Source: Dethiobacter alkaliphilus (GTDB lineage Bacteria > Bacillota > Dethiobacteria > DTU022 > UBA8154). Taken from it: DNA of 64,000 bases. Location of the stretch: the NCBI GenBank assembly GCA_016841605.1, contig JAENYV010000004.1, positions 1 to 64,000 on the forward strand, written 5' to 3'. The notes below the pieces were generated by a model. The model was not told the DNA's origin. It did no database searches and saw only the letters and a program-made list of their open reading frames with translations. The number at the start of each line of letters is the position of its first letter. The first letter of the stretch is position 1. A program made the translations under genes and the position numbers. Shown here one piece after another: positions 8,024 through 28,359 of this stretch.

Positions 8024-9607
8024 ATGAGTTTGAGTAAAGGCATTAACGCTTCCAACACTACTTTAACGAGGAACAGAACACCGGGGAGTATATCTCCTTT
8101 CTCGGGTCTTTGCAGCACTTGTTTGGAAGGCTGCCCGGGACTGTGTGAGGTCGGTAAATCTGCTTATCGCGGGAGGGAAGTTATCTACCCGCAACCGTAC
8201 GGAACTACGACTTTTGCATCCGAAAAGGATTATCCGGTGGATTTTTCTCACTTTAATATTATGGGGAGTGCTGTTGGGGCGTACGGTATGGAAGCGGACA
8301 GCAGCAAAGCTATTTTTCATGCCGTTGATACGGGTGTTTCAATCGGTAAAAATGATAAGATCAAGCTTAAATTTCCTGTTGTTATTCCGGGAATGGGTTC
8401 CACAAAAGTTGCCGCGGATAACTGGGAAGGATTGGCAGCAGGTGCTGCTCTTTCCGGAGTTATGATTGTGATTGGTGAAAATGTTTGCGGTATGGACTCC
8501 GAATCGGAGATGAAAAATGGGAGAGTAGTAAAGTCTCCGCAATTGATTAGAAGAATAGAGAGTTTTCGCCGCTGGTACGACGGATACGGTGTTATCGCCG
8601 TGCAGTCTAACGTTGAAGATACCGGTTTTGGCGTTTTTGAATATGCTCTGGGGGAACTGGGTGTTGAGGCTGTAGAACTAAAATGGGGTCAGGGAGCCAA
8701 ATCTATCGGAGGAGAAGTAAAAATTACCCAACTTGAAAAAGCACTTGAACTGAGCCGGAGAGGTTATCTTGTCTATCCCGACCCGGAAGATCCCACTGTT
8801 CAGGATCTCTTTAAAAAAGGAGTTATCCGGGAGTTTGAACGCCATTCACGTATCGGCATGGTCGAAGGAGAAGCTTTCATTCGCAAGGTAGAGGAACTTC
8901 GCAAATTGGGTGCCAAGTATGTTTTCCTCAAAACCGGCGCCTACAGGCCTCGTGATCTGGCTCTTGCCGTTAAACTGGCATCTGAGGCGGGAGTAGATCT
9001 CCTGACGATCGATGGTGCCGGCGGGGGAACAGGTATGAGCCCCTGGAGAATGATGAATGAGTGGGGTGTTCCCACTGTTTACCTGGCTGTTCTCTGTCGT
9101 CAATACATGAACATCCTGGATCAAAATAAGAAATATACTCCTCCTGTAGCTCTGGCCGGTGGAATTACGTTGGAAGATCACATTTTCAAAGCACTTGCCC
9201 TGGGAGCACCTTATTTTAAACTGGCCGGTATGGCCCGGGCTCCTCTAACGGCAGTAATGGTCGGAAATACGTTGGATAAAATGGTCAAGGAAGGCAAAGT
9301 CCCGTCGAATCTGGCGGATAAATACGGGTCTACGGAAGAAGAACTTTTTACCTACGCTTACAGTTTAAAGGAGCGGTTGGGAGATAGCTATGCCGATCTG
9401 CCTCCGGGAGCTCTGGCTCTTTACACTTATTTTGAAAGGATTACTACCGGGCTGCAACAGTTAATGTGCGGTGCAAGGAAATTTTCTCTGGAACATCTGC
9501 AAAGAGACGATATCGCTGCATTAACAGAAGAGGCAGCCCGTGCAACAGGCATCAAGTATGTTCTTGAAATGGATTCCCAGGAGGCGGAAGAGATCCTGAG
9601 AAGTTAA
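8024..9607 (+). CDS. FMN-binding glutamate synthase-like protein, paralog 1
   Basis: A 527-residue protein homologous to the FMN/Fe-S synthase domain of glutamate synthase (GltB domain 2), but with no glutaminase domain and no GXGXG domain. The FMN barrel is seen from ELKWGQGAKSIGGEVK through KTGAYRPRDLA and DGAGGGTGMSPWRMMNEWGVP to ALAGGITLEDHIFKALALGAP. The N-terminus has a four-cysteine motif, C-x2-C-x3-C-x3-C (residues 27-38), that could hold an Fe-S cluster; another conserved Cys is in LMCGARKF. It has its own strong promoter and lies between two iclR genes. The substrate is unknown. True glutamate synthase activity would need ammonia or a separate amidotransferase. Confidence 0.85.
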   Translation: MSLSKGINASNTTLTRNRTPGSISPFSGLCSTCLEGCPGLCEVGKSAYRGREVIYPQPYGTTTFASEKDYPVDFSHFNIMGSAVGAYGMEADSSKAIFHAVDTGVSIGKNDKIKLKFPVVIPGMGSTKVAADNWEGLAAGAALSGVMIVIGENVCGMDSESEMKNGRVVKSPQLIRRIESFRRWYDGYGVIAVQSNVEDTGFGVFEYALGELGVEAVELKWGQGAKSIGGEVKITQLEKALELSRRGYLVYPDPEDPTVQDLFKKGVIREFERHSRIGMVEGEAFIRKVEELRKLGAKYVFLKTGAYRPRDLALAVKLASEAGVDLLTIDGAGGGTGMSPWRMMNEWGVPTVYLAVLCRQYMNILDQNKKYTPPVALAGGITLEDHIFKALALGAPYFKLAGMARAPLTAVMVGNTLDKMVKEGKVPSNLADKYGSTEEELFTYAYSLKERLGDSYADLPPGALALYTYFERITTGLQQLMCGARKFSLEHLQRDDIAALTEEAARATGIKYVLEMDSQEAEEILRS

Positions 9608-9648
9608 TTTATGTCTGACCTCCGGGAACCCTATTAGGAGGGTTTAGC

Positions 9649-10449
9649 ATGGGAGAAACTGTGAAAAGCCATGTCACCGAAAAAGTAGTTCAATCTGTAG
9701 AGAGAACACTCCGTATTATGGAATTTATGGCATCCAGAGGTTCTCCCATGTCGTTGGGGGAAATAAGCAGTAATCTTGATTTAAAGCTTAGCACCGCCCA
9801 TCGGCTATTAAAAACGTTGATACTAAAAGGTTTTGCTGAACAAGATATAACTACCGGAAAGTACAAGCTGGGTATTAAAACGTTTTTGATCGGAAATACG
9901 GCTCTTTATAATCTTGATATCCGTGCCGTGGCAAGACCTTTTCTTGAAAAATTGGTAGAGACATTTAATGAAACGGCAAATTTGGCGGTTTTAGACCAGT
10001 TAGATGTTATCTATATCGACCAGATTGAGTCTCAAAAAATGGTTAAGATGCTCGCCAGGCTCGGCAGCAAAATTCCGGCCTATACAAATGCTGTGGGAAA
10101 GGTGCTTTTAGCCGGCTTAAGTAGTAGTGAATTAACTACTTATTTTAAAAATAACCAGTTTCAATTATTAACGAAAAAAACGGTTATTTCTTTTGAACAA
10201 TTTAAAAAAGAATTGGAGACGATTAAAAAACAGGGCTATGCCCTGGACCTGGAGGAAACAGACGAGGGGATAACTTGCGCGGCCTCGGCAATTTATAATC
10301 ACATGGGCAGAGTCATTGCGGCTCTCGGTGTTTCCGGTCCCAGCCATCGTATGAGAATATATTTTGAAAAAAAGGATCTCATTAATTCATTAAAAGAAGC
10401 TGCAAATGGGATTTCTTTCAAGCTGGGTTATCAAAGTTTCTCGAGATAA
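9649..10449 (+). CDS. IclR-family transcriptional regulator (second copy)
   Basis: A 266-residue protein with an N-terminal winged HTH (LGEISSNLDLKLSTAHRLLKTL, residues 25-50) and an IclR ligand domain. It shares extended stretches with the first copy (RPFLEKLVETFNETANLAVLD compares with RPYLEELVEKCNETANLAVLD). It starts 41 bases after the FMN protein with an AGGAGGG site, so it is probably in that transcript, and a terminator follows it. It may regulate the NuoE promoter just downstream or its own operon; both are inference. Confidence 0.92.
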   Translation: MGETVKSHVTEKVVQSVERTLRIMEFMASRGSPMSLGEISSNLDLKLSTAHRLLKTLILKGFAEQDITTGKYKLGIKTFLIGNTALYNLDIRAVARPFLEKLVETFNETANLAVLDQLDVIYIDQIESQKMVKMLARLGSKIPAYTNAVGKVLLAGLSSSELTTYFKNNQFQLLTKKTVISFEQFKKELETIKKQGYALDLEETDEGITCAASAIYNHMGRVIAALGVSGPSHRMRIYFEKKDLINSLKEAANGISFKLGYQSFSR

Positions 10450-10477
10450 TCGACTCAAAAAAGCTTTGAACAATATA

Positions 10478-10506
10478 AAGGACCTGTAAAAGGGTCCTTT
10501 TTTTAT
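10478..10506 (+). terminator. Rho-independent terminator
   Basis: The arms AAAGGACC and GGGTCCTTT flank a short A-rich loop and are followed by seven T. It separates the iclR transcript from the NuoE-like operon promoter. Confidence 0.85.
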
Positions 10507-10519
10507 GTTTCTGAAGTTG

Positions 10520-10548
10520 TTGACAGTGTTTTTCTCCATGGTTATAAT
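10520..10548 (+). promoter_or_regulatory. Consensus promoter of the NuoEFG-like/FMN operon
   Basis: TTGACA (10520-10525) and TATAAT (10543-10548) are 17 bases apart, a full sigma-A consensus. About 90 bases of leader follow, with a small hairpin (CATTTCTC/GGAAATG, about 10577-10597), before the gene starting at 10639. Confidence 0.85.
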
Positions 10549-10638
10549 AAAGGAAGCCTTTCCACAATATGAAAAGCATTTCTCTCTGAGGGAAATGGCA
10601 TTTTTTATAAAAACTTTTTTCAAAATTGAGGTGAAAAA

Positions 10639-11202
10639 ATGGAAGAAAAATATCAGGATGAATTTGAAGAGTTTTTGAAAGCATTGGAAAACGGAGAGGT
10701 AACTGCCGAATATGACGGGAAAGAGATTTCGGAGGCAGTGTGTCCGGCCAATGGTTCAGGGAAGGGAGATAATAACGAAGAAAATAATTCCATTGTTTCT
10801 TTGCTGCAGGAGATCCAGAAAGAACATCATTATCTACCCGCAGATGTTTTAAAAGAAGTGGCTGAGAAAAGAAACATACCGCTCATGGATATTTACAGTG
10901 TAGCTACCTTTTATAAGTCTTTCAGCCTTGAACCTGTCGGAAAACATAAAATTGTCTGTTGTTCAGGTACCGCATGTCATGTGAGGGGAGGCAAGAAGAT
11001 TACCGGTGAAATATCTCGTTTGCTGAAAATAAAACCTGGTGAGACTTCGAAGGACAGGCTATTCTCGCTGGAGACGGTAAGCTGCCTGGGGGCCTGTGCC
11101 CTGGCCCCGCTTGTGGTCGTTGATGGAGAGTACTGTGGGAATATGGCGACTTCCCGTATTGAATCATTTTTAGAAGAGCGTCTTCCCCTGCAGAAAGAAT
11201 AG
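10639..11202 (+). CDS. NuoE/HydC-like [2Fe-2S] thioredoxin-fold subunit
   Basis: A 187-residue homolog of the 24-kDa NADH dehydrogenase subunit (NuoE) and of subunits of NAD-linked hydrogenases and formate dehydrogenases. The four cluster ligands are seen as C-x4-C (CCSGTACHV) and C-x3-C (SCLGACALAP). An N-terminal extension of about 45 acidic residues precedes the family domain. It is the first gene of an operon with a NuoF-like, a short NuoG-like and an FMN glutamate-synthase-like gene. It should relay electrons to or from the NuoF flavin. No hydrogenase or complex I membrane genes are nearby. Confidence 0.9.
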   Translation: MEEKYQDEFEEFLKALENGEVTAEYDGKEISEAVCPANGSGKGDNNEENNSIVSLLQEIQKEHHYLPADVLKEVAEKRNIPLMDIYSVATFYKSFSLEPVGKHKIVCCSGTACHVRGGKKITGEISRLLKIKPGETSKDRLFSLETVSCLGACALAPLVVVDGEYCGNMATSRIESFLEERLPLQKE

Positions 11203-11298
11203 ACTCAACCTAAATCTTAAGTCCATGAATAAACGATTTGTGACAAAAACGGAACTGGGAAATATTGAAATCAGTCCGTTGCGGAAGGAGACCTGTCC

Positions 11299-13164
11299 AT
11301 GAGTTTATCCGGAATAAAAATTAAAGACCAGGAAGATTTAAATCGTCTTCAAAATGTTTTAAAAAAAAGAAGAAATGATGAGGAGTGTTCCGTTGCTATC
11401 TGCGGGGGAACTGGATGTCACAGCTCCGGATCTGAAAAAGTAAGGGAAGCTTTTCAAAGATACCTGGAAAGAAATGATCCGGAAGGAAAAATTAAGCTGC
11501 GTCTGACCGGGTGTCAGGGGCTCTGTGAACGGGGACCTCTGGTTGTTATTTTCCCCCAGGAAATTTTTTATCAAAAAGTAAGCGTTGACGATGTTGAAGA
11601 GATTATCGAAAAAACGGTCCTAAACGGAGAAATTTTGGAAAGGCTGCTTTTCACTGATCCCATAAGTGGAGAAAAGTATACTTATTCGCGGGAAATTCCA
11701 TTTTTACAAAAACAGAAACGTCTTCTCCTGGGTAACAACCGGCTGATAGAACCCACCAGCATTATGGATTATATTTCTCTTGGCGGCTACGGAGCTCTTG
11801 CGGGAGCGCTTACGAAAATGACAGGTGAAGAGATTATTCAGGAAATTAGTTATGCACTTTTAAGAGGACGAGGCGGAGCCGGATTTCCCACAGGGCAAAA
11901 GTGGAAAGAGTGTTATGAAGCAGTATCGGATGAAAAGTATATAATTTGTAATGCAGATGAAGGGGATCCCGGTGCTTTTATGGATAGAAGTTTGCTGGAG
12001 GGCAATCCCCATCTGGTTTTGGAAGGTTTGATCATCGGAGGGTACGCCGTTGGTGCCGGGGAAGGAATTGTTTATGTCCGGGCGGAGTATCCGATTGCAG
12101 TACAAAATATAAATAACGCCATTAAGCAGGCAGAAAAGCTGGGCTTATTAGGAGAAAATATCCTCGGCAGCGGCTTTAATTTTCATGTTCGGGTTGTTAC
12201 AGGTGCGGGAGCTTTCGTTTGCGGAGAAACATCCGCTCTTGTGGAGGCGGTTTACGGGAGAGTGGGAGAACCCAGACAAAAGCCTCCACATCTCGCTGAA
12301 CAGGGATATATGAATAAGCCGACAGTTGTCAATAATGTGGAATCTCTGGCCAATGTTACAGTTATTATCCGTGATGGGGCGGAACGTTACAGACAGGTAG
12401 GGACGGAAAAATCCAAAGGGACAAAAATTTTTTCACTAGTAGGGAAAGTAAACAATACCGGTCTGGTTGAGGTACCTCTCGGAATGAGTTTAAGGGAGAT
12501 TATTTTTGAAATAGGAGGGGGCGTTCAAGGAGGAAAAGAGTTTAAGGCGGTACAAACAGGGGGGCCTTCAGGCGGATGCATTCCTGAGTCCCTTTTGGAC
12601 ATGCCTACGGATTTTGACGAACTGGCTTCTGCCGGGTCAATGATGGGTTCCGGAGGCATGATTGTTATGGATGAAGATACCTGCATGGTGGATATTGCCC
12701 GGTATTTTTTAAATTTCTTAAAGGAAGAATCCTGTGGTCGTTGTTTCTCCTGCCGGGAGGGAATTAGCAGGATGCTTGAAATAGTTGAAGACATTTCCAG
12801 AGGGAGAAGCTCACTTGAACAATTGGAGCTTCTCATGGAGCTGGCTGATGTAGTTCAGGATTCAACGATGTGCGGCCTGGGGCAAACATCGGCTAATCCG
12901 GTCCTTTCCACTATTCGTTATTTTAAAGATGAGTATCTGGCCCATATTCTGGAGAAAAGGTGCCCGGCAGGAGTTTGCCATGATTTAATATCTTTTAGTA
13001 TTGATAAGGATCTCTGCACCGGATGCGGAGCCTGCGCTAAAAAATGTCCATCGAAAGCAATCGAAGGTGTGATAAAACAAGCTCATATGATTAATTTGCA
13101 GAAATGTACAAAGTGCGGGATTTGTTTTGAGATCTGCAAATTTGGTGCTGTGCAGAAAAGTTAG
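11299..13164 (+). CDS. NuoF/HydB-like NADH-binding flavoprotein subunit
   Basis: A 621-residue diaphorase subunit. Domains in order: a thioredoxin-like [2Fe-2S] domain (CGGTGC and CQGLC, residues 35-80), the FMN/NADH domain (RGRGGAGFPTGQKW and NADEGDPGAFMDRS), an SLBB domain, the NuoF [4Fe-4S] site (ESCGRCFSCREG plus MCGLG), and a C-terminal 2[4Fe-4S] ferredoxin (CTGCGACAKKC and CTKCGICFEIC). This is the HydB-type build of bifurcating hydrogenases and NAD-dependent formate dehydrogenases. It should exchange hydride with NAD(H). Its partner here is not a hydrogenase but an FMN glutamate-synthase-like protein. Confidence 0.93.
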   Translation: MSLSGIKIKDQEDLNRLQNVLKKRRNDEECSVAICGGTGCHSSGSEKVREAFQRYLERNDPEGKIKLRLTGCQGLCERGPLVVIFPQEIFYQKVSVDDVEEIIEKTVLNGEILERLLFTDPISGEKYTYSREIPFLQKQKRLLLGNNRLIEPTSIMDYISLGGYGALAGALTKMTGEEIIQEISYALLRGRGGAGFPTGQKWKECYEAVSDEKYIICNADEGDPGAFMDRSLLEGNPHLVLEGLIIGGYAVGAGEGIVYVRAEYPIAVQNINNAIKQAEKLGLLGENILGSGFNFHVRVVTGAGAFVCGETSALVEAVYGRVGEPRQKPPHLAEQGYMNKPTVVNNVESLANVTVIIRDGAERYRQVGTEKSKGTKIFSLVGKVNNTGLVEVPLGMSLREIIFEIGGGVQGGKEFKAVQTGGPSGGCIPESLLDMPTDFDELASAGSMMGSGGMIVMDEDTCMVDIARYFLNFLKEESCGRCFSCREGISRMLEIVEDISRGRSSLEQLELLMELADVVQDSTMCGLGQTSANPVLSTIRYFKDEYLAHILEKRCPAGVCHDLISFSIDKDLCTGCGACAKKCPSKAIEGVIKQAHMINLQKCTKCGICFEICKFGAVQKS

Positions 13165-13184
13165 AAAGAAAGGGAGGTGTTAAA

Positions 13185-13862
13185 ATGGTCAATCTAACGC
13201 TCAATGGGCTGGAGATCACTGTGGAGAAGGGGACAACCTTGCTTGAAGCAGCAAAATTTTATGGGATTGAAATTCCAACGCTGTGTTATGACGAGGCTTT
13301 AAGCCCTTATGGGGCCTGTCGGCTTTGCCTGGTGGAAGTGAGCAAACCCGGTGGCCGTTCCAAGTTAGTTAGTTCCTGTACATATCCTGCTATGGAGGGA
13401 TTGGTTGTCAGGACCCATTCTGAAAGGGTCATGAAAGCGAGAAGGTTGTTGATTGAACTCTATTTGGCGACCTGTCCTTCATCTAAGACCATTCAGGATC
13501 TGGCTTCCAAATATCATGTTACCAAAGTACGTTTTACTCAGAAGCACGAAGATTGTATTTTATGTGGACTTTGTGTCCGCATGTGTGAAGAGCAGATGCA
13601 GGCAAAAGCTATCGGTTTTGTAAACAGGGGAGCAGAAAGGCGCATTTCGACACCTTTTGACGCAAAATCGGATGAATGCAGACTTTGTGGCGGATGTATA
13701 TACATCTGTCCGGCTTGCCGGTTAAGGTGTCAGGGACCAAATGAAGAAAGTCCGGTTTGCAATGCCTGTCTGAATCTTTCCCCTCCCTGTCTTGATCAGT
13801 ATGATGATGCCATGTGTTATATGGATCCCTGTGTAGCTTGTGAACTTAAAATACAGAAATGA
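13185..13862 (+). CDS. Short NuoG-like Fe-S protein
   Basis: A 225-residue protein matching only the N-terminal Fe-S part of NuoG/HydA. A plant-type [2Fe-2S] domain (residues 1-80: CYDEALSPYGACRLC then SCTYP) is followed by two [4Fe-4S] motifs (CILCGLCVRMC and CRLCGGCIYIC) and an extra Cys-rich tail (CNACLNL, CVACELK). The usual His-x3-Cys-x2-Cys cluster stretch is reduced to ATCPSS, so that cluster is probably missing. There is no molybdopterin or H-cluster domain. It starts 21 bases after the NuoF-like gene and probably wires it to the FMN partner encoded next. Confidence 0.85.
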   Translation: MVNLTLNGLEITVEKGTTLLEAAKFYGIEIPTLCYDEALSPYGACRLCLVEVSKPGGRSKLVSSCTYPAMEGLVVRTHSERVMKARRLLIELYLATCPSSKTIQDLASKYHVTKVRFTQKHEDCILCGLCVRMCEEQMQAKAIGFVNRGAERRISTPFDAKSDECRLCGGCIYICPACRLRCQGPNEESPVCNACLNLSPPCLDQYDDAMCYMDPCVACELKIQK

Positions 13863-13895
13863 AAAAATGTTTTTATACAGAGAGGAGATAAATAA

Positions 13896-15479
13896 ATGAG
13901 TTATTCCAGGATGAATGCGTCAGCGGCAACTCTGACCAAAAATCGTACCGAAGGAGCGGTAAGCCCCTTTAGCGGTATGTGCGTAACTTGTGTGGACGGG
14001 TGTGTCGGTATGTGCGAAATCGGAAAATCCGCCTACCGGGGACATGAAACGATCTATCCTCAACCTTTTGGTATTATCACCACCGCTTCGGAAAAAAATT
14101 ACCCAGTAGATTATTCGCATTTTTCTATTATGGGTACTGCTGTCGGCGCTCATGGGATTGCCCCCGACAGCGATTTGGCAATTTTTCCTAATGTTAAGCT
14201 GGAGACCAAAGTGGGCCGCGGCGACGGGATCAAGTTAAAACTTCCCTTTGTAATTCCCGGTATTGGCTCCACCGATGTGGCCAAGAACAACTGGGATGGA
14301 TTGGCCATCGGTTCGGCACTGGCCGGAACAATCCTGACCATTGGAGAGAATGTCGTCGGTATGGATGAGAATTCGGTTATTGAAGACGGACGTATTGTCA
14401 GCACCGTTGATCTTGCCCGAAGAGTACGGCTCTTCCAGGATTGGCAGCGGGACGGGTACGGTGCCATTGTTGTACAGGCCAATGTAGAGGATACCAGGCT
14501 GGGAGTGCAGGAATATGCGGTCAACGAGCTTGGGGTTGAGGTAGTGGAGTTAAAGTGGGGACAGGGAGCGAAGGATATCGGCGGCGAGGTCAAGATAAAA
14601 AGTCTGGAAAAGGCACAGATGTTGAAAAAGCGCGGTTATGTCGTCCTGCCGGACCCGGAAAACCCCGCGGTCATAAAAGCTTTTCAAAAGGGTTCTTTTA
14701 AAGAATTCGAACGTCACTCCCGTGTGGGGATGGTTGAGCTGGAATCTTTCCTGCAAAGAGTCGAGGAGCTGCGCAGGGCAGGGGCCAAATATGTTTTCCT
14801 AAAAACAGGTGCATACCGTCCTGCGGATCTGGCCCGTGCGGTTAAATTTGCTTCCCTGGCTAAAATCGATATGCTGACCGTAGACGGAGCAGGCGGGGGG
14901 ACAGGGATGAGCCCATGGAGGATGATGAACGAGTGGGGAGTTCCCGTCGTGGAGCTGCATTCCCTTCTCTACCGGTACTGCCGTAAACTTGCCGACAAGG
15001 GAGAGTATGTTCCCGACATAGCTCTGGCGGGAGGTTTCACATTGGAGGATCAGATCTATAAGGGGCTGGCTCTGGGAGCTCCCTTTGTCAAGCTGATCGG
15101 AATGGCCCGTTCTCCCATCGCGGCAGCGATGGTGGGGAAAACAATTGGCAAGAGGATTGGGGATGGCAAGATTCCTGTTTATGTGGAGCGTTTCGGAAAT
15201 ACGGTGGAAGAGATATTTGTCACTGCCTCCGGACTGAAAGACGAACTGGGAGAGAGTGCTTTCAATGATGTGCCTCCCGGAGCTTTGGGGCTGTATACCT
15301 ATTATGAGCGTCTGGCCCAGGGATTAAAACAGTTGATGTGCGGCAGCCGGAAGTTTGCCCTTGATTATATTTCCAGAGATGATTTGGCTGCCCTGACCAG
15401 GGAAGCAGCCGACATTAGCGGGCTGAATTACGTGATGGACATTGACATGGAAGAAGCGGATAAAATCCTGGAAATTTAG
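13896..15479 (+). CDS. FMN-binding glutamate synthase-like protein, paralog 2
   Basis: A 527-residue paralog of the gene at 8024, with the same length and the same key stretches: N-terminal C-x2-C-x3-C-x3-C (CVTCVDGCVGMC), ELKWGQGAKDIGGEVK, DGAGGGTGMSPWRMMNEWGVP and LMCGSRKF. It is the last gene of the NuoE-NuoF-NuoG-like operon, 34 bases after the NuoG-like gene, and a terminator follows. The context says the FMN barrel is the catalytic end of an NADH- and/or ferredoxin-linked complex. No glutaminase is encoded nearby. The substrate is unknown; N-methylglutamate-synthase-type (MgsC) chemistry is one alternative within the family. Confidence 0.87.
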   Translation: MSYSRMNASAATLTKNRTEGAVSPFSGMCVTCVDGCVGMCEIGKSAYRGHETIYPQPFGIITTASEKNYPVDYSHFSIMGTAVGAHGIAPDSDLAIFPNVKLETKVGRGDGIKLKLPFVIPGIGSTDVAKNNWDGLAIGSALAGTILTIGENVVGMDENSVIEDGRIVSTVDLARRVRLFQDWQRDGYGAIVVQANVEDTRLGVQEYAVNELGVEVVELKWGQGAKDIGGEVKIKSLEKAQMLKKRGYVVLPDPENPAVIKAFQKGSFKEFERHSRVGMVELESFLQRVEELRRAGAKYVFLKTGAYRPADLARAVKFASLAKIDMLTVDGAGGGTGMSPWRMMNEWGVPVVELHSLLYRYCRKLADKGEYVPDIALAGGFTLEDQIYKGLALGAPFVKLIGMARSPIAAAMVGKTIGKRIGDGKIPVYVERFGNTVEEIFVTASGLKDELGESAFNDVPPGALGLYTYYERLAQGLKQLMCGSRKFALDYISRDDLAALTREAADISGLNYVMDIDMEEADKILEI

Positions 15480-18913: not shown

Positions 18914-21016
18914 ATGTGGAAGAGCAGAAGCCGGGTAAAAGAAGAATCCCCTAGTGTCCCGCCCTGCCAGGACGCTTGTCCCATACATCAGGAGGTTCGG
19001 GAATATCTCCGTCTGATTGCTGCCGGTGAATTTAGCCGTTCTCTGGAGGTTATCAGGAAAAACAATCCCCTTGCTTCTGTTTGCGGGACCATTTGCCCCC
19101 ATTACTGTGAAAATGCCTGCCGCCGTCAAAATATTGATGAGCCCCTCTCCATCAGAGGCTTGAAACGGGCTGCGGTGGAATATGGAGAGGCGTCTTACCC
19201 TGCCCCTCCGGCAGATCCAGGGAAAAAAGTTGCGGTTATTGGTTCCGGACCCGCAGGAATAAGCGCTGCTTTTGATCTGGTTATGCAGGGTTGCACGGTC
19301 ACTGTTCTTGAGCGTGAAGCTCTTGCCGGGGGTGCTCCCCGCAACTTTATCCCCCTGTACCGCCTTCCCGATGAAACTATTGACCGGGATATTGAGCTGC
19401 TGCAAAAGCTGGGGATTGAGTTTAAAACAGGTATCGAATTCGGCACGGACGTTAACCTGGATGACTTGAAAAAAGATGGTTTTAAAGCTATCCTTCTCGC
19501 CGTAGGCCTTACTGCCGGCCGTGGGCTTTCCATTCCGGGAGCTGATCACAGAGATATTCTCATGGCCCTTCATTTTTTAAAAGCTTCCAAGCGGGAAGGA
19601 TTTTACCTTGACGGCCGGGAGGTCATTGTTGTCGGCGGCGGGAATGTGGCCATAGATGTAGCCCGCTCGGCAGTTCGTTGTGGCGCTGCCAGGGTTAGGC
19701 TGGTCTGTCTAGAGAAAAAAGAAGAAATGCCTGCTTTTCCCCAGGAGATCGAAGAAGCCGGGGAAGAGGGTGTGGAGTTTAACTGCTCCTGGGGACCTGC
19801 AGGGATTCGAGTTGAAGATGGGAGAATTTCCGGTCTGGATCTCCATGAGTGCATCTCTGTTTTTGATGACCGGCAAACATTTAATCCCTGTTTTAATGAA
19901 TTGCATCAGACTTTTATTCCCGGAGATCTAGTTATTGTGTCCATTGGACAGACGCAAGATTTAGAAACCGTCAGTAGAGCCGGGGTCCAGGTGGATAATC
20001 GGGGCTGCCTGAAGTTCGATCCTGGTACCATGAAAACTCCCGTTGAAGGGGTCTTCGCCTGCGGGGAAATCGTCACAGGGCCCGTTACGGCCGTAAAAGC
20101 TATGGCTCATGGAAAGGTGGCGGCCATCTCTATTGCCGCTTACCTGGAAGGAAAATCATTTGCCGGTTCCCTGCTTGATTCGGAAGATCCCCTTCCCGAG
20201 CTGGAAGCTGATGTAGCCGCGAATGTGCTGAAGATTACCCGTGAGGAGATCCCCATGCTTACTGTTCAGGAGCGTACCCATAATTTTCTTCCCGTGGAAA
20301 AAGGTTATACCATGGCCATGGCGGTCTGGGAGAGCCTGCGCTGCCTGGGTTGCGCTGCCGGAGCCCGGCAGATTGTGGAAAAATGCGTCAATTGTCTGAC
20401 CTGCTTGCGGACCTGTCCTTATCATGTGCCGGTTGTGAGCGGGATGGGTGATGTGATGATCCGGGATCATCAGTGCCAGGCCTGCGGCCTTTGTCTTACC
20501 GTCTGTCCCAACCTGGCTATTGAGTTTCGGACGCCATATATTGCCGAGGCTGAAGAGAAACTGGAGTATGAGATTAAAGAACTGACGACTTTCAACGGCA
20601 ATGATCCGGCAGTTTTGATCCTGGCCTGCGGGCTGGGGGCTTTTGCCCTTCCGGAGTTTAACGAAGGTTTTATTAAGAACAAGCCGGAGAACGTGTCTAT
20701 GGTAAAATTTCCCTGTATTTCTAAGATCGATACAACCCATGTCCTTCAGGCCTTTAAACTGGGGGTTGACAGTGTTGTCACAGTCGGTTGTGCAGAGGAC
20801 GAAAGAGATGCTTGTCCCTTTGGGAAGACCATGTTTTGGGCCGGGCAGCGGGCAAAACGTATTAAGTACCTGTTAAATGAGTCCGGTATCGAAGAAGAAA
20901 GGTTCGTTCTCCTCGGCCTCTCTGCAAAAGATGCGGCTCGTTTTAGCAATACCATCAGTGAAGTCCTGGCCGAAATACAAAAACTAGGCAAAAGAAACAG
21001 TAGCAATACAGTTTAA
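18914..21016 (+). CDS. GltD-like flavoprotein fused to ferredoxin and FlpD/MvhD-like domains
   Basis: A 700-residue fusion. Residues 1-90 resemble the Fe-S N-terminus of glutamate synthase small subunit (CQDACPIHQEVREYL, CGTICPHYCENACRR). Next come FAD and NAD(P)H Rossmann motifs (VIGSGPAGISA, VVGGGNVAIDVARSA), then two [4Fe-4S] motifs (CVNCLTCLRTC, CQACGLCLTVC; about 490-540). Residues 560-690 resemble FlpD/MvhD, the delta subunit that feeds electrons to heterodisulfide reductases. The usual FlpD cysteine at the start (CSYAG-type) is reduced to ILACGLG, but VGCAEDERDACPFGKT keeps Cys residues. No hdr or mvh genes are adjacent, so the partner is unknown. It is probably cytoplasmic. Confidence 0.85.
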   Translation: MWKSRSRVKEESPSVPPCQDACPIHQEVREYLRLIAAGEFSRSLEVIRKNNPLASVCGTICPHYCENACRRQNIDEPLSIRGLKRAAVEYGEASYPAPPADPGKKVAVIGSGPAGISAAFDLVMQGCTVTVLEREALAGGAPRNFIPLYRLPDETIDRDIELLQKLGIEFKTGIEFGTDVNLDDLKKDGFKAILLAVGLTAGRGLSIPGADHRDILMALHFLKASKREGFYLDGREVIVVGGGNVAIDVARSAVRCGAARVRLVCLEKKEEMPAFPQEIEEAGEEGVEFNCSWGPAGIRVEDGRISGLDLHECISVFDDRQTFNPCFNELHQTFIPGDLVIVSIGQTQDLETVSRAGVQVDNRGCLKFDPGTMKTPVEGVFACGEIVTGPVTAVKAMAHGKVAAISIAAYLEGKSFAGSLLDSEDPLPELEADVAANVLKITREEIPMLTVQERTHNFLPVEKGYTMAMAVWESLRCLGCAAGARQIVEKCVNCLTCLRTCPYHVPVVSGMGDVMIRDHQCQACGLCLTVCPNLAIEFRTPYIAEAEEKLEYEIKELTTFNGNDPAVLILACGLGAFALPEFNEGFIKNKPENVSMVKFPCISKIDTTHVLQAFKLGVDSVVTVGCAEDERDACPFGKTMFWAGQRAKRIKYLLNESGIEEERFVLLGLSAKDAARFSNTISEVLAEIQKLGKRNSSNTV

Positions 21017-24077: not shown

Positions 24078-24677
24078 ATGTTTAGCAAAGACCTGATGGA
24101 AATTCGCTTTCACGGCAGGGGAGGGCAGGGTGCCGTTCTCTCCGCAACATTGGCGGCAGAAGTGGCCTTTCGGATGGGCTATTATCCCCAGGCCTTCCCA
24201 TTTTTCGGAGCGGAAAGGCGTGGTGCCCCGGTTATCGCTTTTCTGCGTTACAGCAGTTTTCCTCTCATGCCCCGTTGCCGGATTTATGAACCCCATTGTG
24301 TCGTCGTTTTTGACCCGGAACTTCCCCGGGAAGCACTTTGGGAAGGCCTAAAAAGAGAAGGAGGAATTATGCTGGTAAATGCCGACAAGAATCATCCCTA
24401 CTGGTCCCAAGGAATAAATGGCGGCAAGCTCTATACTGTAGATGCCTCCAGGATTGCCGCCGGTGCCGGCCTGATATCTTCAGGGATGCCTCTGGTCAGC
24501 AGTGTCATGCTGGGCGCTTTGGTGAAAGTTCTCGGGCTGGCTCCTTTTCATGTCTTGGAGGAATGTTTCCAAGGGAAAATTCCGAAATTGCAGGAAAATG
24601 TTCTTGTTGCCGCACAGGGGTATCAAGACGTAAAGGAGGTAGAGATAGAAGATGAAGATGCAAATGCCGGGCAGTAA
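24078..24677 (+). CDS. 2-oxoacid:ferredoxin oxidoreductase, gamma subunit
   Basis: A 199-residue gamma subunit of the pyruvate/2-ketoisovalerate ferredoxin oxidoreductase family. The signature RFHGRGGQGAVLSATLAAEVAF is at the N-terminus, followed by FPFFGAERRGAPVIAFLR. It is the first gene of a four-gene operon (gamma, GltD-delta fusion, alpha, beta) and overlaps the next gene by 26 bases. AAGGAGG sets the start. The substrate cannot be read from this subunit. Confidence 0.9.
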   Translation: MFSKDLMEIRFHGRGGQGAVLSATLAAEVAFRMGYYPQAFPFFGAERRGAPVIAFLRYSSFPLMPRCRIYEPHCVVVFDPELPREALWEGLKREGGIMLVNADKNHPYWSQGINGGKLYTVDASRIAAGAGLISSGMPLVSSVMLGALVKVLGLAPFHVLEECFQGKIPKLQENVLVAAQGYQDVKEVEIEDEDANAGQ

Positions 24678-26316
24678 TCATACTTTTCCTCTCTCTCCTG
24701 TCATAGAAACGATTCCGACGCCGGTCAATAAAACGGGCTTGTGGAGATTTTTAACTCCGGTCCGCAAAGAGCTGGTATCTCCCTGTCGGGCACTTTGCCC
24801 GCTGGAAAGTAAAATTCCTTTGTGGATGGAAGAAATTAAAAAGGGGAACTGGGAACAGGCATGGCAGGTGATGGAACAATTTAATCCCTTTCCCGCGCTC
24901 ACAGGATACGCGTGCTACCAGTTTTGCCGGAGTCAGTGCAGCAGAGGAGAGTGGGACGAACCCGTTGCCATTCGCGATGTTGAGAAGGCTCTGGGGCTTT
25001 GGCGGCAGAAAAACTACCGCTCTTCCGGACTTGCCGGAGGCCAAAAGAAAAAGCAATCTACCGGCGAAAAAACGGATGCTCCCCGGATAATTATTGTAGG
25101 CTCCGGGCCTGCCGGACTGAGCAGTGCCTACTATCTGAACCGGATGGGTACAAAAGTAACCGTGTTGGAGAAAGAGCCTGTCGCCGGCGGTCTTCTGGCC
25201 ACTGGTATTCCCCGTCACCGTCTTCCCAGGGAAATTCTGGAGAAGGAACTCCTGATTCTGCAGGAGGAAGGGATTGTCATCAAGACAGGCCGGGAAATGG
25301 GCAGGGATTTTCTGCTTAAAGATCTCACAGCAGACTGTGAAGCACTTTTACTGTGTGTGGGAGCCGGTGAGATTAATCCTCTCGGTGTTCCGGGGGATAA
25401 CCTTCCAGGTGTTATCGGGGCTATTGATTTTCTCAAAGAGGTCCATCTGGAAAGCCGGCCGGTTGTTAGCGGAGTTGTTCTCGTTATCGGCGGCGGGAAT
25501 GCAGCTGTAGACGCGTCGACTGTTGCCGCGCTTAGTGGAGCAGAAGAGGTTATTCTGGCCTATCGTCGCTCCGAGGAAGTGATGCCTGCCCACCCTGAGG
25601 AGGTCAAAGCAGCCGGGGACGCAAACGTGAAGTTTCTTTTTAATGTTGTTTTGGATGAGATCCACGGCAGCGGGAGTGTTGAGAAAGTAACTTTATCCCG
25701 GGTCCGGCCTGCGGAGCGAGGAGAAGAGGTCCGGCGGATTTCCGGTTCAAGTTTTACGCTGGAATGCCAAATGATTATCAATGCGACAGGACAGAAAAGC
25801 AGTTTGCCCGGACTTGTCTCCCTGCCGGAGAGCGGGGAGGCGAAAGCGGTCGGTTTTATTGGAGAGGGCTGCTCTGTTTCTGCCGCTGGTGATGCTGTGA
25901 CCGGTCCCTCCAACATCGCTGCAGCCATTTTTAGCGGCCGGCAGGCTGCCTTAAATCTGGCCGGAGTCCTTTTTAATACGTCGGAGTTGGGGGAGTTTCT
26001 CCTGCCGGCTCCCGCGCTGGAGAAGAAGGATGAGCCGGTGCCTTTTGAAACCCTGAACCCTTACCTTTATGCGCACCGGGAAGTATCCGTGCTTCCGGAG
26101 AAGGAAGCAGCACGCTGTTTTAGCTGTGGGAACTGCAATAACTGTGGTGTCTGCTGGGCTTTCTGTCCGGAACTGGCTATGGTGTATGAAAAGGGAGTCT
26201 ACGAGCTGCAATTGGATTATTGCAAGGGATGCGGGATCTGCGCGGCTGAATGCCCGACCGGCGTCCTGTTTATGGAGGAGGTGAGCGATTCTGGAACGCA
26301 AATTAATGAACGGTAA
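24652..26316 (+). CDS. GltD-like flavoprotein fused to oxidoreductase delta (2[4Fe-4S]) ferredoxin
   Basis: A 554-residue fusion. The N-terminus has glutamate-synthase-small-subunit-like cysteines (CRALCPLESKIPLWM, CYQFCRSQC). FAD and NAD(P)H Rossmann motifs follow (IVGSGPAGLSSAYYLNRMG about residue 145; VIGGGNAAVDAST about 280), then FAD-closing GDAVTGPSNIA. The last 70 residues are a ferredoxin (CFSCGNCNNCGVC and CKGCGICAAEC) replacing the separate delta subunit of this enzyme family. Placed between gamma and alpha genes, it should link the oxidoreductase to NAD(P)H. It overlaps both neighbours, which suggests translational coupling. Confidence 0.88.
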   Translation: MKMQMPGSNHTFPLSPVIETIPTPVNKTGLWRFLTPVRKELVSPCRALCPLESKIPLWMEEIKKGNWEQAWQVMEQFNPFPALTGYACYQFCRSQCSRGEWDEPVAIRDVEKALGLWRQKNYRSSGLAGGQKKKQSTGEKTDAPRIIIVGSGPAGLSSAYYLNRMGTKVTVLEKEPVAGGLLATGIPRHRLPREILEKELLILQEEGIVIKTGREMGRDFLLKDLTADCEALLLCVGAGEINPLGVPGDNLPGVIGAIDFLKEVHLESRPVVSGVVLVIGGGNAAVDASTVAALSGAEEVILAYRRSEEVMPAHPEEVKAAGDANVKFLFNVVLDEIHGSGSVEKVTLSRVRPAERGEEVRRISGSSFTLECQMIINATGQKSSLPGLVSLPESGEAKAVGFIGEGCSVSAAGDAVTGPSNIAAAIFSGRQAALNLAGVLFNTSELGEFLLPAPALEKKDEPVPFETLNPYLYAHREVSVLPEKEAARCFSCGNCNNCGVCWAFCPELAMVYEKGVYELQLDYCKGCGICAAECPTGVLFMEEVSDSGTQINER

Positions 26317-27448
26317 CCAGGCTGCCGCCCTGGCTGTCAAGCTTTCCAGGGTGCAGGTGGTCTGCGCGTATCCCATTACGCCCCAGACCTCTCTGGTGGA
26401 AAATATCGCTGAAATGTGGGCCACAGGAACTTTCCCGGGTGAGTACATAAGTGTGGAATCGGAATATTCAGCTCTATCCTACCTTGTGGGCGCGGCTTAT
26501 GCCGGAGCGCGCACCTTTACCGCTACTTCCTGCCAGGGTTTGGCCTATATGCACGAATTATTGCACTGGGCCGGCGGAGCCCGGCTGCCCATTGTCATGG
26601 TCAATGTGAACCGGACTCTGGGAGCTCCGTGGAGCCTGGAGCCGGATCAGCGTGATAGCCTTTCCCAGCGTGATACAGGCTGGATTCAGTTATACTGCTG
26701 TGACGTTCAGGAAATTATGGATACTGTTCTTTTGTCTTTTCGCCTGGTTGAAGAGGCAAAAATTCCCTGTATGGTTGTTTATGATGGTTTTTCTCTCTCC
26801 CATACCTATGAGGTGGTGGAGCTTCCCCTGCAGGAGCAGGCGGACTTATTTCTCTCCCCTCCACCGCAGGAAGCACTGTTCCATCCCTCCCGGCCCCAGA
26901 CGATTCAGCCGGTAACCGATTATCGCTATATGGCCAGGGTTATCCAGGCCGGGCACCGGGCCATGCTGCAGGTCCCCGCTGCTCTGGAAGAAATTAATCG
27001 CTCATTTGCCGGGATTTTTGGCCGGGATTATCCCCTGGCGGAGAAGACAGGGCCGGAAAATGCCGAGACAATTTTTGTGGCCGCAGGAGCTGTAGCCCAG
27101 ACAGTAAAAAGTTTTCTCCCCTTGTTGGATGGAGGGGTGGAGAAAAACGGGCTTTTGCGGTTGAGGCTTTTTAAACCCTTGCCGGAAGAAGAAATTGTCT
27201 CCTTTTTGAGCAGGGAGAGTATTAAGAGCCTGGTAGTCATTGACCGGAATCTCTCCATGGGGACGGGAGGAATTTTTGCCCAGGAAATAAGGGCACTTCT
27301 CCAGGGGACTTCCTTTCAAGGGGAGATATTTGAGTTAAATTTGGCCGGCGGGATTGACCTGACGCTGGAACTGTTGCGCAAGAGTATGGAGAAAATAGGC
27401 GCATCTCCGGCCGGAGATGAGAAGATTATCTGGGGGGTGGATCTCTAA
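26291..27448 (+). CDS. 2-oxoacid:ferredoxin oxidoreductase, alpha subunit
   Basis: The alpha subunit (380 residues from ATG 26306; 385 from 26291). The thiamine-pyrophosphate pyrimidine-binding domain is seen in YPITPQTSLVENIAE and SVESEYSALSYLVGAAYAGART; a domain II Rossmann-like part follows. The only strong ribosome site, GGAGGAGGTG at 26274-26283, is 22 bases before ATG 26306 but about 7 bases before an in-frame CTG at 26291 (ATT at 26288), so a non-ATG start giving LERKLMNGNQ is likely. It overlaps the upstream gene. The substrate is pyruvate or a branched/aromatic 2-oxoacid; not decided. Confidence 0.87.
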   Translation: MERKLMNGNQAAALAVKLSRVQVVCAYPITPQTSLVENIAEMWATGTFPGEYISVESEYSALSYLVGAAYAGARTFTATSCQGLAYMHELLHWAGGARLPIVMVNVNRTLGAPWSLEPDQRDSLSQRDTGWIQLYCCDVQEIMDTVLLSFRLVEEAKIPCMVVYDGFSLSHTYEVVELPLQEQADLFLSPPPQEALFHPSRPQTIQPVTDYRYMARVIQAGHRAMLQVPAALEEINRSFAGIFGRDYPLAEKTGPENAETIFVAAGAVAQTVKSFLPLLDGGVEKNGLLRLRLFKPLPEEEIVSFLSRESIKSLVVIDRNLSMGTGGIFAQEIRALLQGTSFQGEIFELNLAGGIDLTLELLRKSMEKIGASPAGDEKIIWGVDL

Positions 27449-28359
27449 TGGGAAATGTGCCTGTCTTTAAGGAAACTCTGTTGGGTAACCTTCCGCAAGA
27501 AGAATATATGCTCAGCGGTCATAATGCCTGCCCCGGATGCGGAGCAGTTTTGGCCGTGCGCTATATGATGAAGGTTTTGCAAGATAAAGCGGTAATCGTT
27601 ATACCTGCCTCCTGCTGGAGTATTATTTCCGGGGTAAACCCCCTGCGCTCTCTGGAAACTGTTGTCTTACACTGTCCTTTTCCGGCAGCGGCTGCCGTGG
27701 GAAGCGGGATCAGGAAGGGATTGCAGGCTGTGGGGGATTTACAAACCCAGGTTGTGGTTTTGGCCGGCGACGGAGGCACCTTTGATATCGGTCTCCAGGG
27801 ATTATCCGGGGCTGCGGAACGGAACGAGGATATTATTTTTGTCTGTTATGACAATGAAGCATACATGAACACCGGAATGCAGAAAAGCTCCGCGACTCCT
27901 TACGGGTCGGCTTCAACGACAACGCCGGCTCCTCGTGTCAAACAGAATCCCAAAAAAGATATTATGAAAATCATGGCTGCCCACCAGATTCCCTATGCAG
28001 CGACTGCGACCATTGCTTTTCCCGGGGACCTGATCGCCAAGGTCCGCCGGGCGATGGAAATACGGGGTTTTCGTTTTCTGCACATTTTAGCCCCCTGTCC
28101 GCAGGGATGGGGGAGTCCTGTTGAAAAAACTGTGGAGCTGTCCCGCCTGGCGGTGCTGACGCATGTTTTTCCCCTTTTCGAGATCCAAGACGGAAAACAG
28201 TATCGCCTGACTTATCATCCGGAGGACCCCCTACCTCTGGAAGAATACTTCCGCCCCCAGCGGCGTTTTGCCTCCCTTGAGCCGGAGCAGGTGGAACTGG
28301 TCCGGGAAAATGTGGCATACTCTTGGGAGGAACTCTGCCGGAAAGCCGGAATACTGTAG
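27448..28359 (+). CDS. 2-oxoacid:ferredoxin oxidoreductase, beta subunit
   Basis: A 303-residue thiamine-diphosphate subunit. It shows CPGCGAVLAVRYMMK, the ThDP/Mg motif GDGGTFDIGLQGLSGAAERNEDI, and the DNEAYMNTGMQKSSATP stretch typical of pyruvate and 2-ketoisovalerate ferredoxin oxidoreductases. Its ATG overlaps the alpha subunit's stop (TAATG). It is the last gene of the operon. The enzyme decarboxylates a 2-oxoacid to the acyl-CoA and reduces ferredoxin, or runs in reverse. Confidence 0.9.
   Translation: MGNVPVFKETLLGNLPQEEYMLSGHNACPGCGAVLAVRYMMKVLQDKAVIVIPASCWSIISGVNPLRSLETVVLHCPFPAAAAVGSGIRKGLQAVGDLQTQVVVLAGDGGTFDIGLQGLSGAAERNEDIIFVCYDNEAYMNTGMQKSSATPYGSASTTTPAPRVKQNPKKDIMKIMAAHQIPYAATATIAFPGDLIAKVRRAMEIRGFRFLHILAPCPQGWGSPVEKTVELSRLAVLTHVFPLFEIQDGKQYRLTYHPEDPLPLEEYFRPQRRFASLEPEQVELVRENVAYSWEELCRKAGIL

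What the first reader, a model, noticed from the sequence alone, without database searches (positions are those of the whole stretch)
18914..21016. GltD-ferredoxin-FlpD fusion without Hdr or Mvh neighbours
A single 700-residue protein joins an FAD/NAD(P)H reductase, two [4Fe-4S] sites and a modified FlpD/MvhD domain. FlpD normally passes electrons to heterodisulfide reductase. Here no hdr genes are seen and the domain's first cysteine motif is altered, so the acceptor is unknown.
Basis: partly seen in the sequence, partly recalled or inferred. Interest (0 to 1): 0.6.

Follow-up and report, generated by a model that had tools for sequence, protein, structure and literature searches.

The report
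NADH-input subunit for methylene-folate reductase
A 700-residue bacterial protein that looks like an orphan electron-transfer fusion is most likely the part that feeds electrons from NADH into the enzyme making methyl-folate in the Wood-Ljungdahl CO2-fixation pathway, a job done in known acetogens by the larger Hdr/MvhD or RnfC2 modules.

Summary
ORF 18914-21016 encodes a GltD-type FAD/NAD(P)H reductase, an 8-Cys ferredoxin and an FlpD/MvhD domain that lacks the usual CxxC start. No Hdr genes were found in the window, though the genome has Hdr and six other FlpD hits elsewhere. Full-length orthologs occur in 85 of 93 genomes of seven related families. In one family (f7) the gene sits in the Wood-Ljungdahl operon, acsE - fusion - metV - metF, with metV directly after the fusion in 18 of 19 genomes. 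Distant relatives fill that same slot with hdrA-mvhD, or with Moorella-type GltD-HdrA plus mvhD. The fusion also precedes metVF in a Chloroflexota and a Coriobacteriia MAG. In the window's own family the gene stands apart: the acs operon runs acsE-metV-metF with the slot empty. Nineteen invariant Cys plus one invariant Lys match four [4Fe-4S] and one [2Fe-2S]. An acidic 'CLE' motif points to NADH, and the Lys resembles the non-bifurcating StnC flavin site. This looks like an HdrA-free variant of the Hdr-type (type IV) reductase. Caveats: nothing was tested biochemically, and three fairly complete genomes keep the fusion with no detectable MetF.

The parts
18914..21016 (+). GltD-ferredoxin-FlpD fusion protein, 700 aa
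   Evidence: ORF and Pfam domains; more than 50 full-length orthologs; AlphaFold2 mean pLDDT 90, pTM 0.89
18959..19186 (+). N-terminal GltD-type Fe-S domain (Fer4_20; residues 16-91); invariant C18, C22, C61, C65, C69 and K84
   Evidence: Pfam; invariance in 53/53
19163..19165 (+). K84, aligned without gaps to StnC K170, which ligates the FAD-proximal [4Fe-4S] of the non-bifurcating GltD domain
   Evidence: phmmer alignment to 8oh5_C; StnC K170 from PMC10482914; invariant in A2
19223..20113 (+). FAD/NAD(P)H two-Rossmann domain (Pyr_redox_2; residues 104-400)
   Evidence: Pfam; closest folds are the NfnABC and StnABC GltD-type subunits
19706..19714 (+). 'CLE' (residues 265-267) at the end of the nucleotide-binding strand; acidic E267 suggests NADH rather than NADPH
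   Evidence: E267 nearly invariant, C265 in 52/53; Moorella-type HdrA GltD also CLE, NuoF-GltD proteins YRR; specificity is inference
20342..20353 (+). RCLxC motif (C477, C480), probably completing a second GltD-side [4Fe-4S]
   Evidence: invariant 53/53; cluster assignment is inference
20381..20518 (+). 8-Cys dicluster ferredoxin domain (residues 490-535)
   Evidence: Pfam; eight invariant Cys
20597..20998 (+). FlpD/MvhD domain (residues 562-695) with four invariant Cys (C572, C601, C626, C634)
   Evidence: Pfam

Best explanation
The protein is the electron-input subunit of a MetVF-type methylene-THF reductase. NADH reduces the FAD in the GltD domain (inferred from fold and motif). Electrons pass one at a time through the GltD-side [4Fe-4S] clusters, the ferredoxin domain and the FlpD [2Fe-2S] (inferred from invariant ligands). 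FlpD docks on MetV, the Fe-S/zinc subunit of MetVF, which passes electrons to the flavin of MetF that reduces methylene-THF to methyl-THF, or works in reverse during methyl-group oxidation (inferred from operon position). It replaces the HdrA(BC)-MvhD module of Moorella- and Sporomusa-type reductases and lacks the HdrA flavin core, so it is probably a simple, non-bifurcating NADH link. In the window's own lineage the gene is apart from the acs-metVF operon and would act in trans on the single MetVF pair at C31.
For: (1) Family f7: fusion directly upstream of metV-metF and downstream of acsE in the acs operon, metV immediately downstream in 18 of 19 genomes, gaps of 0 to -4 bp where measured. 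(2) The same adjacency in a Chloroflexota and a Coriobacteriia MAG, each with a 4-bp overlap. The Chloroflexota GltD falls outside the fusion clade and has a YRR motif, which suggests a separate assembly. (3) The same slot holds hdrA-mvhD in f8, G101 and G107, and GltD-HdrA + mvhD in the Moorella type; there MvhD usually overlaps metV by the same 4 bp. (4) All three f8 genomes with MetV use hdrA-mvhD, and none of the five f8 genomes has the fusion. (5) Own genome: one intact metV-metF pair, 19 bp after acsE, with no partner gene between; fusion and MetV co-occur in f1-f7, 71/14/3/5, Fisher p 0.008 without phylogenetic correction. (6) The best non-fusion matches to the fusion's FlpD profile are MvhDs beside MetVF, and loss of the second Cys of CNWC is shared with MetVF-linked MvhDs of f8, G101, G107 and G098. 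(7) Published: S. ovata MvhD and HdrA pull down MetF; M. thermoacetica HdrA oxidises NADH; MetV and MetF have no conserved NADH site (PMC9430772, PMC8760232). (8) K84 corresponds to K170 of StnC, whose GltD flavin does not bifurcate.
Against: No biochemistry and no modelled complex. In the window's own family the gene is not next to metVF, so assignment there rests on orthology. Three genomes at 91-97% completeness (G036, G038, G053) keep the fusion but have no MetV or MetF hit, and MetV is missing in more f1-f7 genomes (19) than incompleteness alone predicts (about 10). G351 and G330 have a divergent fusion, without the C601 cysteine in G351, besides an hdrA-mvhD-metVF cluster. G016, G020 and G046 have metV but no fusion found.
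Confidence: 0.68

Rival explanations
1. Where it is outside the operon (window's family and order) the protein is a general NADH oxidoreductase passing electrons to another partner, such as a soluble ferredoxin/flavodoxin or an unidentified enzyme that docks on FlpD.
For: Gene apart from metVF in f1-f5 and placed by ppdk/dnaG/rpoD in f3; kept in G036, G038 and G053 without MetF; FlpD domains serve several partners in general; the divergent fusions of G351/G330 coexist with Hdr-type MetVF.
Against: All 19 ligand cysteines, including the four of FlpD, stay invariant outside the operon; no alternative partner gene is conserved beside it across families.
Confidence: 0.2
2. Ordinary Hdr electron-input protein: it passes electrons to an HdrABC encoded elsewhere in the genome.
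For: Own genome has HdrA genes, CCG proteins and MvhDs; FlpD normally contacts HdrA; the C-terminal part matches the HdrA2 model.
Against: The Hdr loci already carry their own FlpD with the full CNWC (or Sec) motif; no ortholog neighbourhood was seen to hold hdrB/C; the operonic orthologs adjoin metVF without Hdr.
Confidence: 0.06
3. Partner of the GltB-like FMN proteins and NuoEFG-like subunits at 8-15 kb (a glutamate-synthase-like complex).
For: GltD domains pair with GltB in glutamate synthase; the cluster lies a few genes upstream here and, in part, in several relatives of the same family.
Against: The association is absent in families f3 and f7; the cluster has its own NuoE/NuoF-type module; FlpD and ferredoxin domains are not part of glutamate synthase (established knowledge).
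Confidence: 0.04

Closest known systems
Type IV (Hdr-type) methylene-THF reductase HdrCBA-MvhD-MetVF of Moorella thermoacetica and Sporomusa ovata (PMC8760232, PMC9430772)
   Same: FlpD/MvhD immediately upstream of metV-metF; in Moorella stamsii and Moorella-like genomes the GltD inserted in HdrA is about 40-45% identical to this GltD, with the same CLE motif and a similar C-terminal ferredoxin
   Different: No HdrA flavin core and no HdrB/C; GltD, ferredoxin and FlpD are one polypeptide; predicted non-bifurcating
Type III methylene-THF reductase RnfC2-MetVF of Acetobacterium woodii (PMC8760232)
   Same: One extra subunit makes MetVF NADH-dependent
   Different: Unrelated NADH module (RnfC-like) instead of GltD-Fd-FlpD
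StnC / NfnA-type subunits of StnABC and NfnABC transhydrogenases (8oh5, 9bov, 9n5u)
   Same: Closest fold over the GltD-ferredoxin part, about residues 11-543 (Z 37-40); same PPCxxxCP...LK pattern; StnC GltD FAD is non-bifurcating (PMC10482914)
   Different: No FlpD; large NuoG-type extension; HydBC-type partners
HdrA2 (HdrA with fused C-terminal MvhD) and archaeal type III HdrA with inserted GltD (PMC12054007)
   Same: Ferredoxin-MvhD C-terminus (NCBIfam HdrA2 hit at 485-695); GltD insertion in type III
   Different: The HdrA FAD domain itself is absent here

Membership tests
Type IV (Hdr-type) MetVF methylene-THF reductase module | mvhD/FlpD adjacent to metV-metF | tested here: met
   For orthologs in f7, Chloroflexota and Coriobacteriia; not adjacent in the window's own genome
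Type IV (Hdr-type) MetVF methylene-THF reductase module | HdrA flavin core plus HdrB and HdrC | tested here: not met
   No HdrA core in the fusion; no hdr genes seen in ortholog neighbourhoods
Type IV (Hdr-type) MetVF methylene-THF reductase module | NADH oxidation and electron transfer to MetF | not testable with these tools
   needs enzyme assay
MvhD/FlpD (PF02662) | Pfam score above curated cut-off and four conserved Cys | tested here: met
   74.8 bits vs 22.3; four Cys invariant
MvhD/FlpD (PF02662) | usual N-terminal C-N-W-C motif | tested here: not met
   second Cys replaced by G575; also missing in several MetVF-linked MvhDs
GltD / NAD(P)H glutamate synthase small subunit | GltD fold with FAD and NAD(P) sites | tested here: met
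GltD / NAD(P)H glutamate synthase small subunit | pairs with GltB | tested here: inconclusive
   GltB-like genes nearby only in part of the window's family
Nfn-type bifurcating GltD subunit (NfnB) | Glu ligand on the FAD-proximal cluster | tested here: not met
   invariant K84, as StnC K170, at that place
HdrA / HdrA2 | HdrA FAD domain | tested here: not met
   HdrA2 model matches only residues 485-695

The most novel reading that the evidence does not exclude
The fusion-MetVF enzyme is itself an electron-bifurcating reductase without HdrA: the GltD FAD splits the NADH electrons, one path to methylene-THF via FlpD-MetV and one to ferredoxin via the dicluster domain, which would tie the methyl branch of the Wood-Ljungdahl pathway to energy conservation in a new way. 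The invariant lysine (StnC-like, non-bifurcating) argues against this but does not exclude it.
Probability: 0.1. Interest if true: 0.8.

Novelty: new variant of a known kind. Interest (0 to 1): 0.58.

Why it matters
What reduces MetVF-type methylene-THF reductases in acetogens and syntrophic acetate oxidisers is an acknowledged open question, and it bears on the ATP budget of these organisms (PMC8760232). A compact single-subunit NADH module that stands where HdrA-MvhD stands offers a simple soluble system to test whether the reaction needs bifurcation at all. It also suggests that FlpD is a plug onto MetV to which different donors have been attached (HdrA, GltD-HdrA, GltD-ferredoxin, an old-yellow-enzyme-type protein). 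I found no description of this form in the papers searched and read; the library holds open-access papers only.

Tried and rejected
Hdr partner: rejected because no ortholog was seen beside hdr genes and Hdr loci carry their own FlpD. GltB partner: link limited to part of one family. The first structure model from 14 sequences was poor in the ferredoxin part; the 53-sequence model is good, but coordinates are not given, so Cys distances could not be measured. The structure searches list only the GltD-ferredoxin part; absence of MvhD among those rows means nothing because one domain fills the list. MetV absence in several genomes was traced to contig ends (G054, G057, G023: acsB or acsC at the contig edge), so those are not real counter-examples. 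An FlpD domain tree is too short and noisy to show one origin. Five paper searches found no earlier description of a GltD-FlpD-MetVF system.

Full report
What is there. The ORF at 18914-21016 (+) encodes 700 aa. Domains from N to C: GltD-type Fe-S domain (Fer4_20), FAD/NAD(P)H two-Rossmann domain, 8-Cys ferredoxin, FlpD/MvhD. The adjacent genes look unrelated: a 178-aa ORF on the other strand upstream and a DNA methylase-like gene downstream. No Hdr CCG domain lies on this contig. The genome does have six other FlpD hits, several beside HdrA, on other contigs, and three of the six contain an in-frame TGA.

Conservation. Full-length orthologs (about 42-72% identical) occur in 85 of 93 genomes of families f1-f7 of the same class, and in none of five genomes of family f8. 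In 53 aligned orthologs, including a Chloroflexota and a Coriobacteriia protein, 19 cysteines and K84 are invariant. Nineteen Cys plus one Lys make 20 ligands, which fits four [4Fe-4S] (two on the GltD side: C18, C22, C61, C65, C69, C477, C480 and K84; two in the ferredoxin: eight Cys) and one [2Fe-2S] (C572, C601, C626, C634). This count is an inference; the GltD-side assignment follows StnC, where three Cys and K170 bind the FAD-proximal cluster (PMC10482914). K84 aligns without gaps to K170.

Context. In family f7 the order is acsB - acsC - ASKHA protein - acsD - acsE - fusion - metV - metF, or a variant of it, all on one strand. Of 19 f7 genomes with the fusion, 18 have metV directly after it; in 16 the spacing was measured and is 0, -1 or -4 bp, and in two the MetV hit lies just downstream. 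In the nineteenth (G084) the fusion follows acsE but no metV follows. In other lineages the slot between acsE and metV holds hdrA + mvhD (f8: G073, G076 and, on a contig that starts there, G082; also G101, G107), and Moorella-type genomes hold a 1485-1488 aa GltD-HdrA (G099, G109, named Moorella stamsii L167), followed by mvhD where called. There MvhD usually overlaps metV by 4 bp. A Chloroflexota MAG (L165) has fusion - metV - metF, and a Coriobacteriia MAG (L166) has acsB - acsC - fusion - metV - metF - cooC-like - acsE. A Dehalococcoidia MAG (L164) has a metF-like ORF next to the fusion, whose ORF is interrupted there.

The window's own lineage. In G000 and eight further examined f1-f5 genomes acsE is followed by metV with nothing between (19 bp in G000). 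The closed genome G184 from another family shows the same arrangement and also has the fusion elsewhere. So the gene has left the operon (or joined it only in some lineages); either way the MetVF there has no other neighbouring donor. In f3 the fusion lies between pyruvate phosphate dikinase and dnaG-rpoD.

Origin of parts. A tree of GltD domains puts the class's fusions, the Dehalococcoidia one and, less firmly, the Coriobacteriia one together, while the Chloroflexota fusion falls elsewhere and carries YRR instead of CLE, which suggests a second assembly. The best non-fusion matches to the fusion's FlpD profile are MvhDs beside MetVF.

Mechanism. NADH -> FAD (GltD) -> [4Fe-4S] clusters -> ferredoxin domain -> FlpD [2Fe-2S] -> MetV -> MetF flavin -> methylene-THF. 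Shown here: domains, invariant ligands, operon position, fold (AlphaFold2 pLDDT 90; closest solved folds NfnABC/StnABC). Inferred: nucleotide preference, cluster types, docking, direction. NADH is favoured because E267 stands where NADPH-type relatives have YRR, and because the Moorella HdrA, whose GltD is about 40-45% identical and has the same CLE, is reported to oxidise NADH (PMC8760232). With potentials of about -320 mV (NADH) and -200 mV (methylene-THF) as quoted in PMC6295475 and PMC9430772, no bifurcation is needed for the forward reaction.

Limits. Co-occurrence of fusion and MetV in f1-f7 is 71/14/3/5 (Fisher p 0.008), without correction for relatedness. G036, G038 and G053 (96, 91 and 97% complete) have the fusion but no MetV or MetF hit, so either these MAGs miss the acs-met locus or the protein has another use there. 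G351 and G330 carry a divergent fusion alongside an hdrA-mvhD-metVF cluster; the G351 copy lacks C601. The taxon is not named by the tools; f8 genome G073 (closed, 3.56 Mb, two metV loci, hdrA-mvhD in the acs operon) resembles the published 'Ca. Contubernalis alkaliaceticus' of class Dethiobacteria (PMC10608574), but I did not verify this.

Filing. It works like, and is probably a variant of, the Hdr-type (type IV) MetVF methylene-THF reductase, with the defining HdrA core and HdrBC tested and not found. In function it would resemble type III (RnfC2-MetVF).

Noticed in passing
24078-28359: PorC-like, GltD-ferredoxin fusion (554 aa), PorA-like and TPP-subunit genes in a row: a 2-oxoacid:ferredoxin oxidoreductase with an NAD(P)H-type GltD fused to its delta-type ferredoxin, resembling NADH-dependent phenylglyoxylate dehydrogenase.
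   Followed up: partly
8024-15479: Two GltB-like FMN proteins (527 aa each) with an IclR regulator and NuoE/NuoF/NuoG-like subunits; parts of this cluster recur upstream of the fusion in several relatives of the same family.
   Followed up: partly
L157:8533-10164: Old-yellow-enzyme-type FMN protein fused to ferredoxin and FlpD (543 aa) directly upstream of a second metV-metF pair: another donor delivered through FlpD.
   Followed up: partly
L146:2463-10268, L147, L156: Molybdopterin/NuoG-like subunit, NuoE-like protein and a NuoF-GltD fusion (947-1027 aa) directly upstream of a second metV-metF pair: a possible formate-linked or bifurcating donor for MetVF without FlpD.
   Followed up: partly
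L110, L113 (own genome C8 and C11): MvhD genes with an in-frame TGA at the second Cys of the first motif (CxWU), probably selenocysteine, near HdrA and aldehyde:ferredoxin oxidoreductase-like genes; L110 holds near-identical repeated gene pairs that may be a duplication or an assembly artefact.
   Followed up: no
L160:12409-19829: HdrA-like (684 and 1035 aa) and further MvhD genes just downstream of an hdrA-mvhD-metVF cluster, a dense Hdr gene island.
   Followed up: no
L269:8487-10523, L270:8850-10895: Divergent GltD-ferredoxin-FlpD fusions (678-681 aa) in genomes that also have hdrA-mvhD-metVF; in L269 one FlpD cysteine is lost, so these may have another acceptor.
   Followed up: partly
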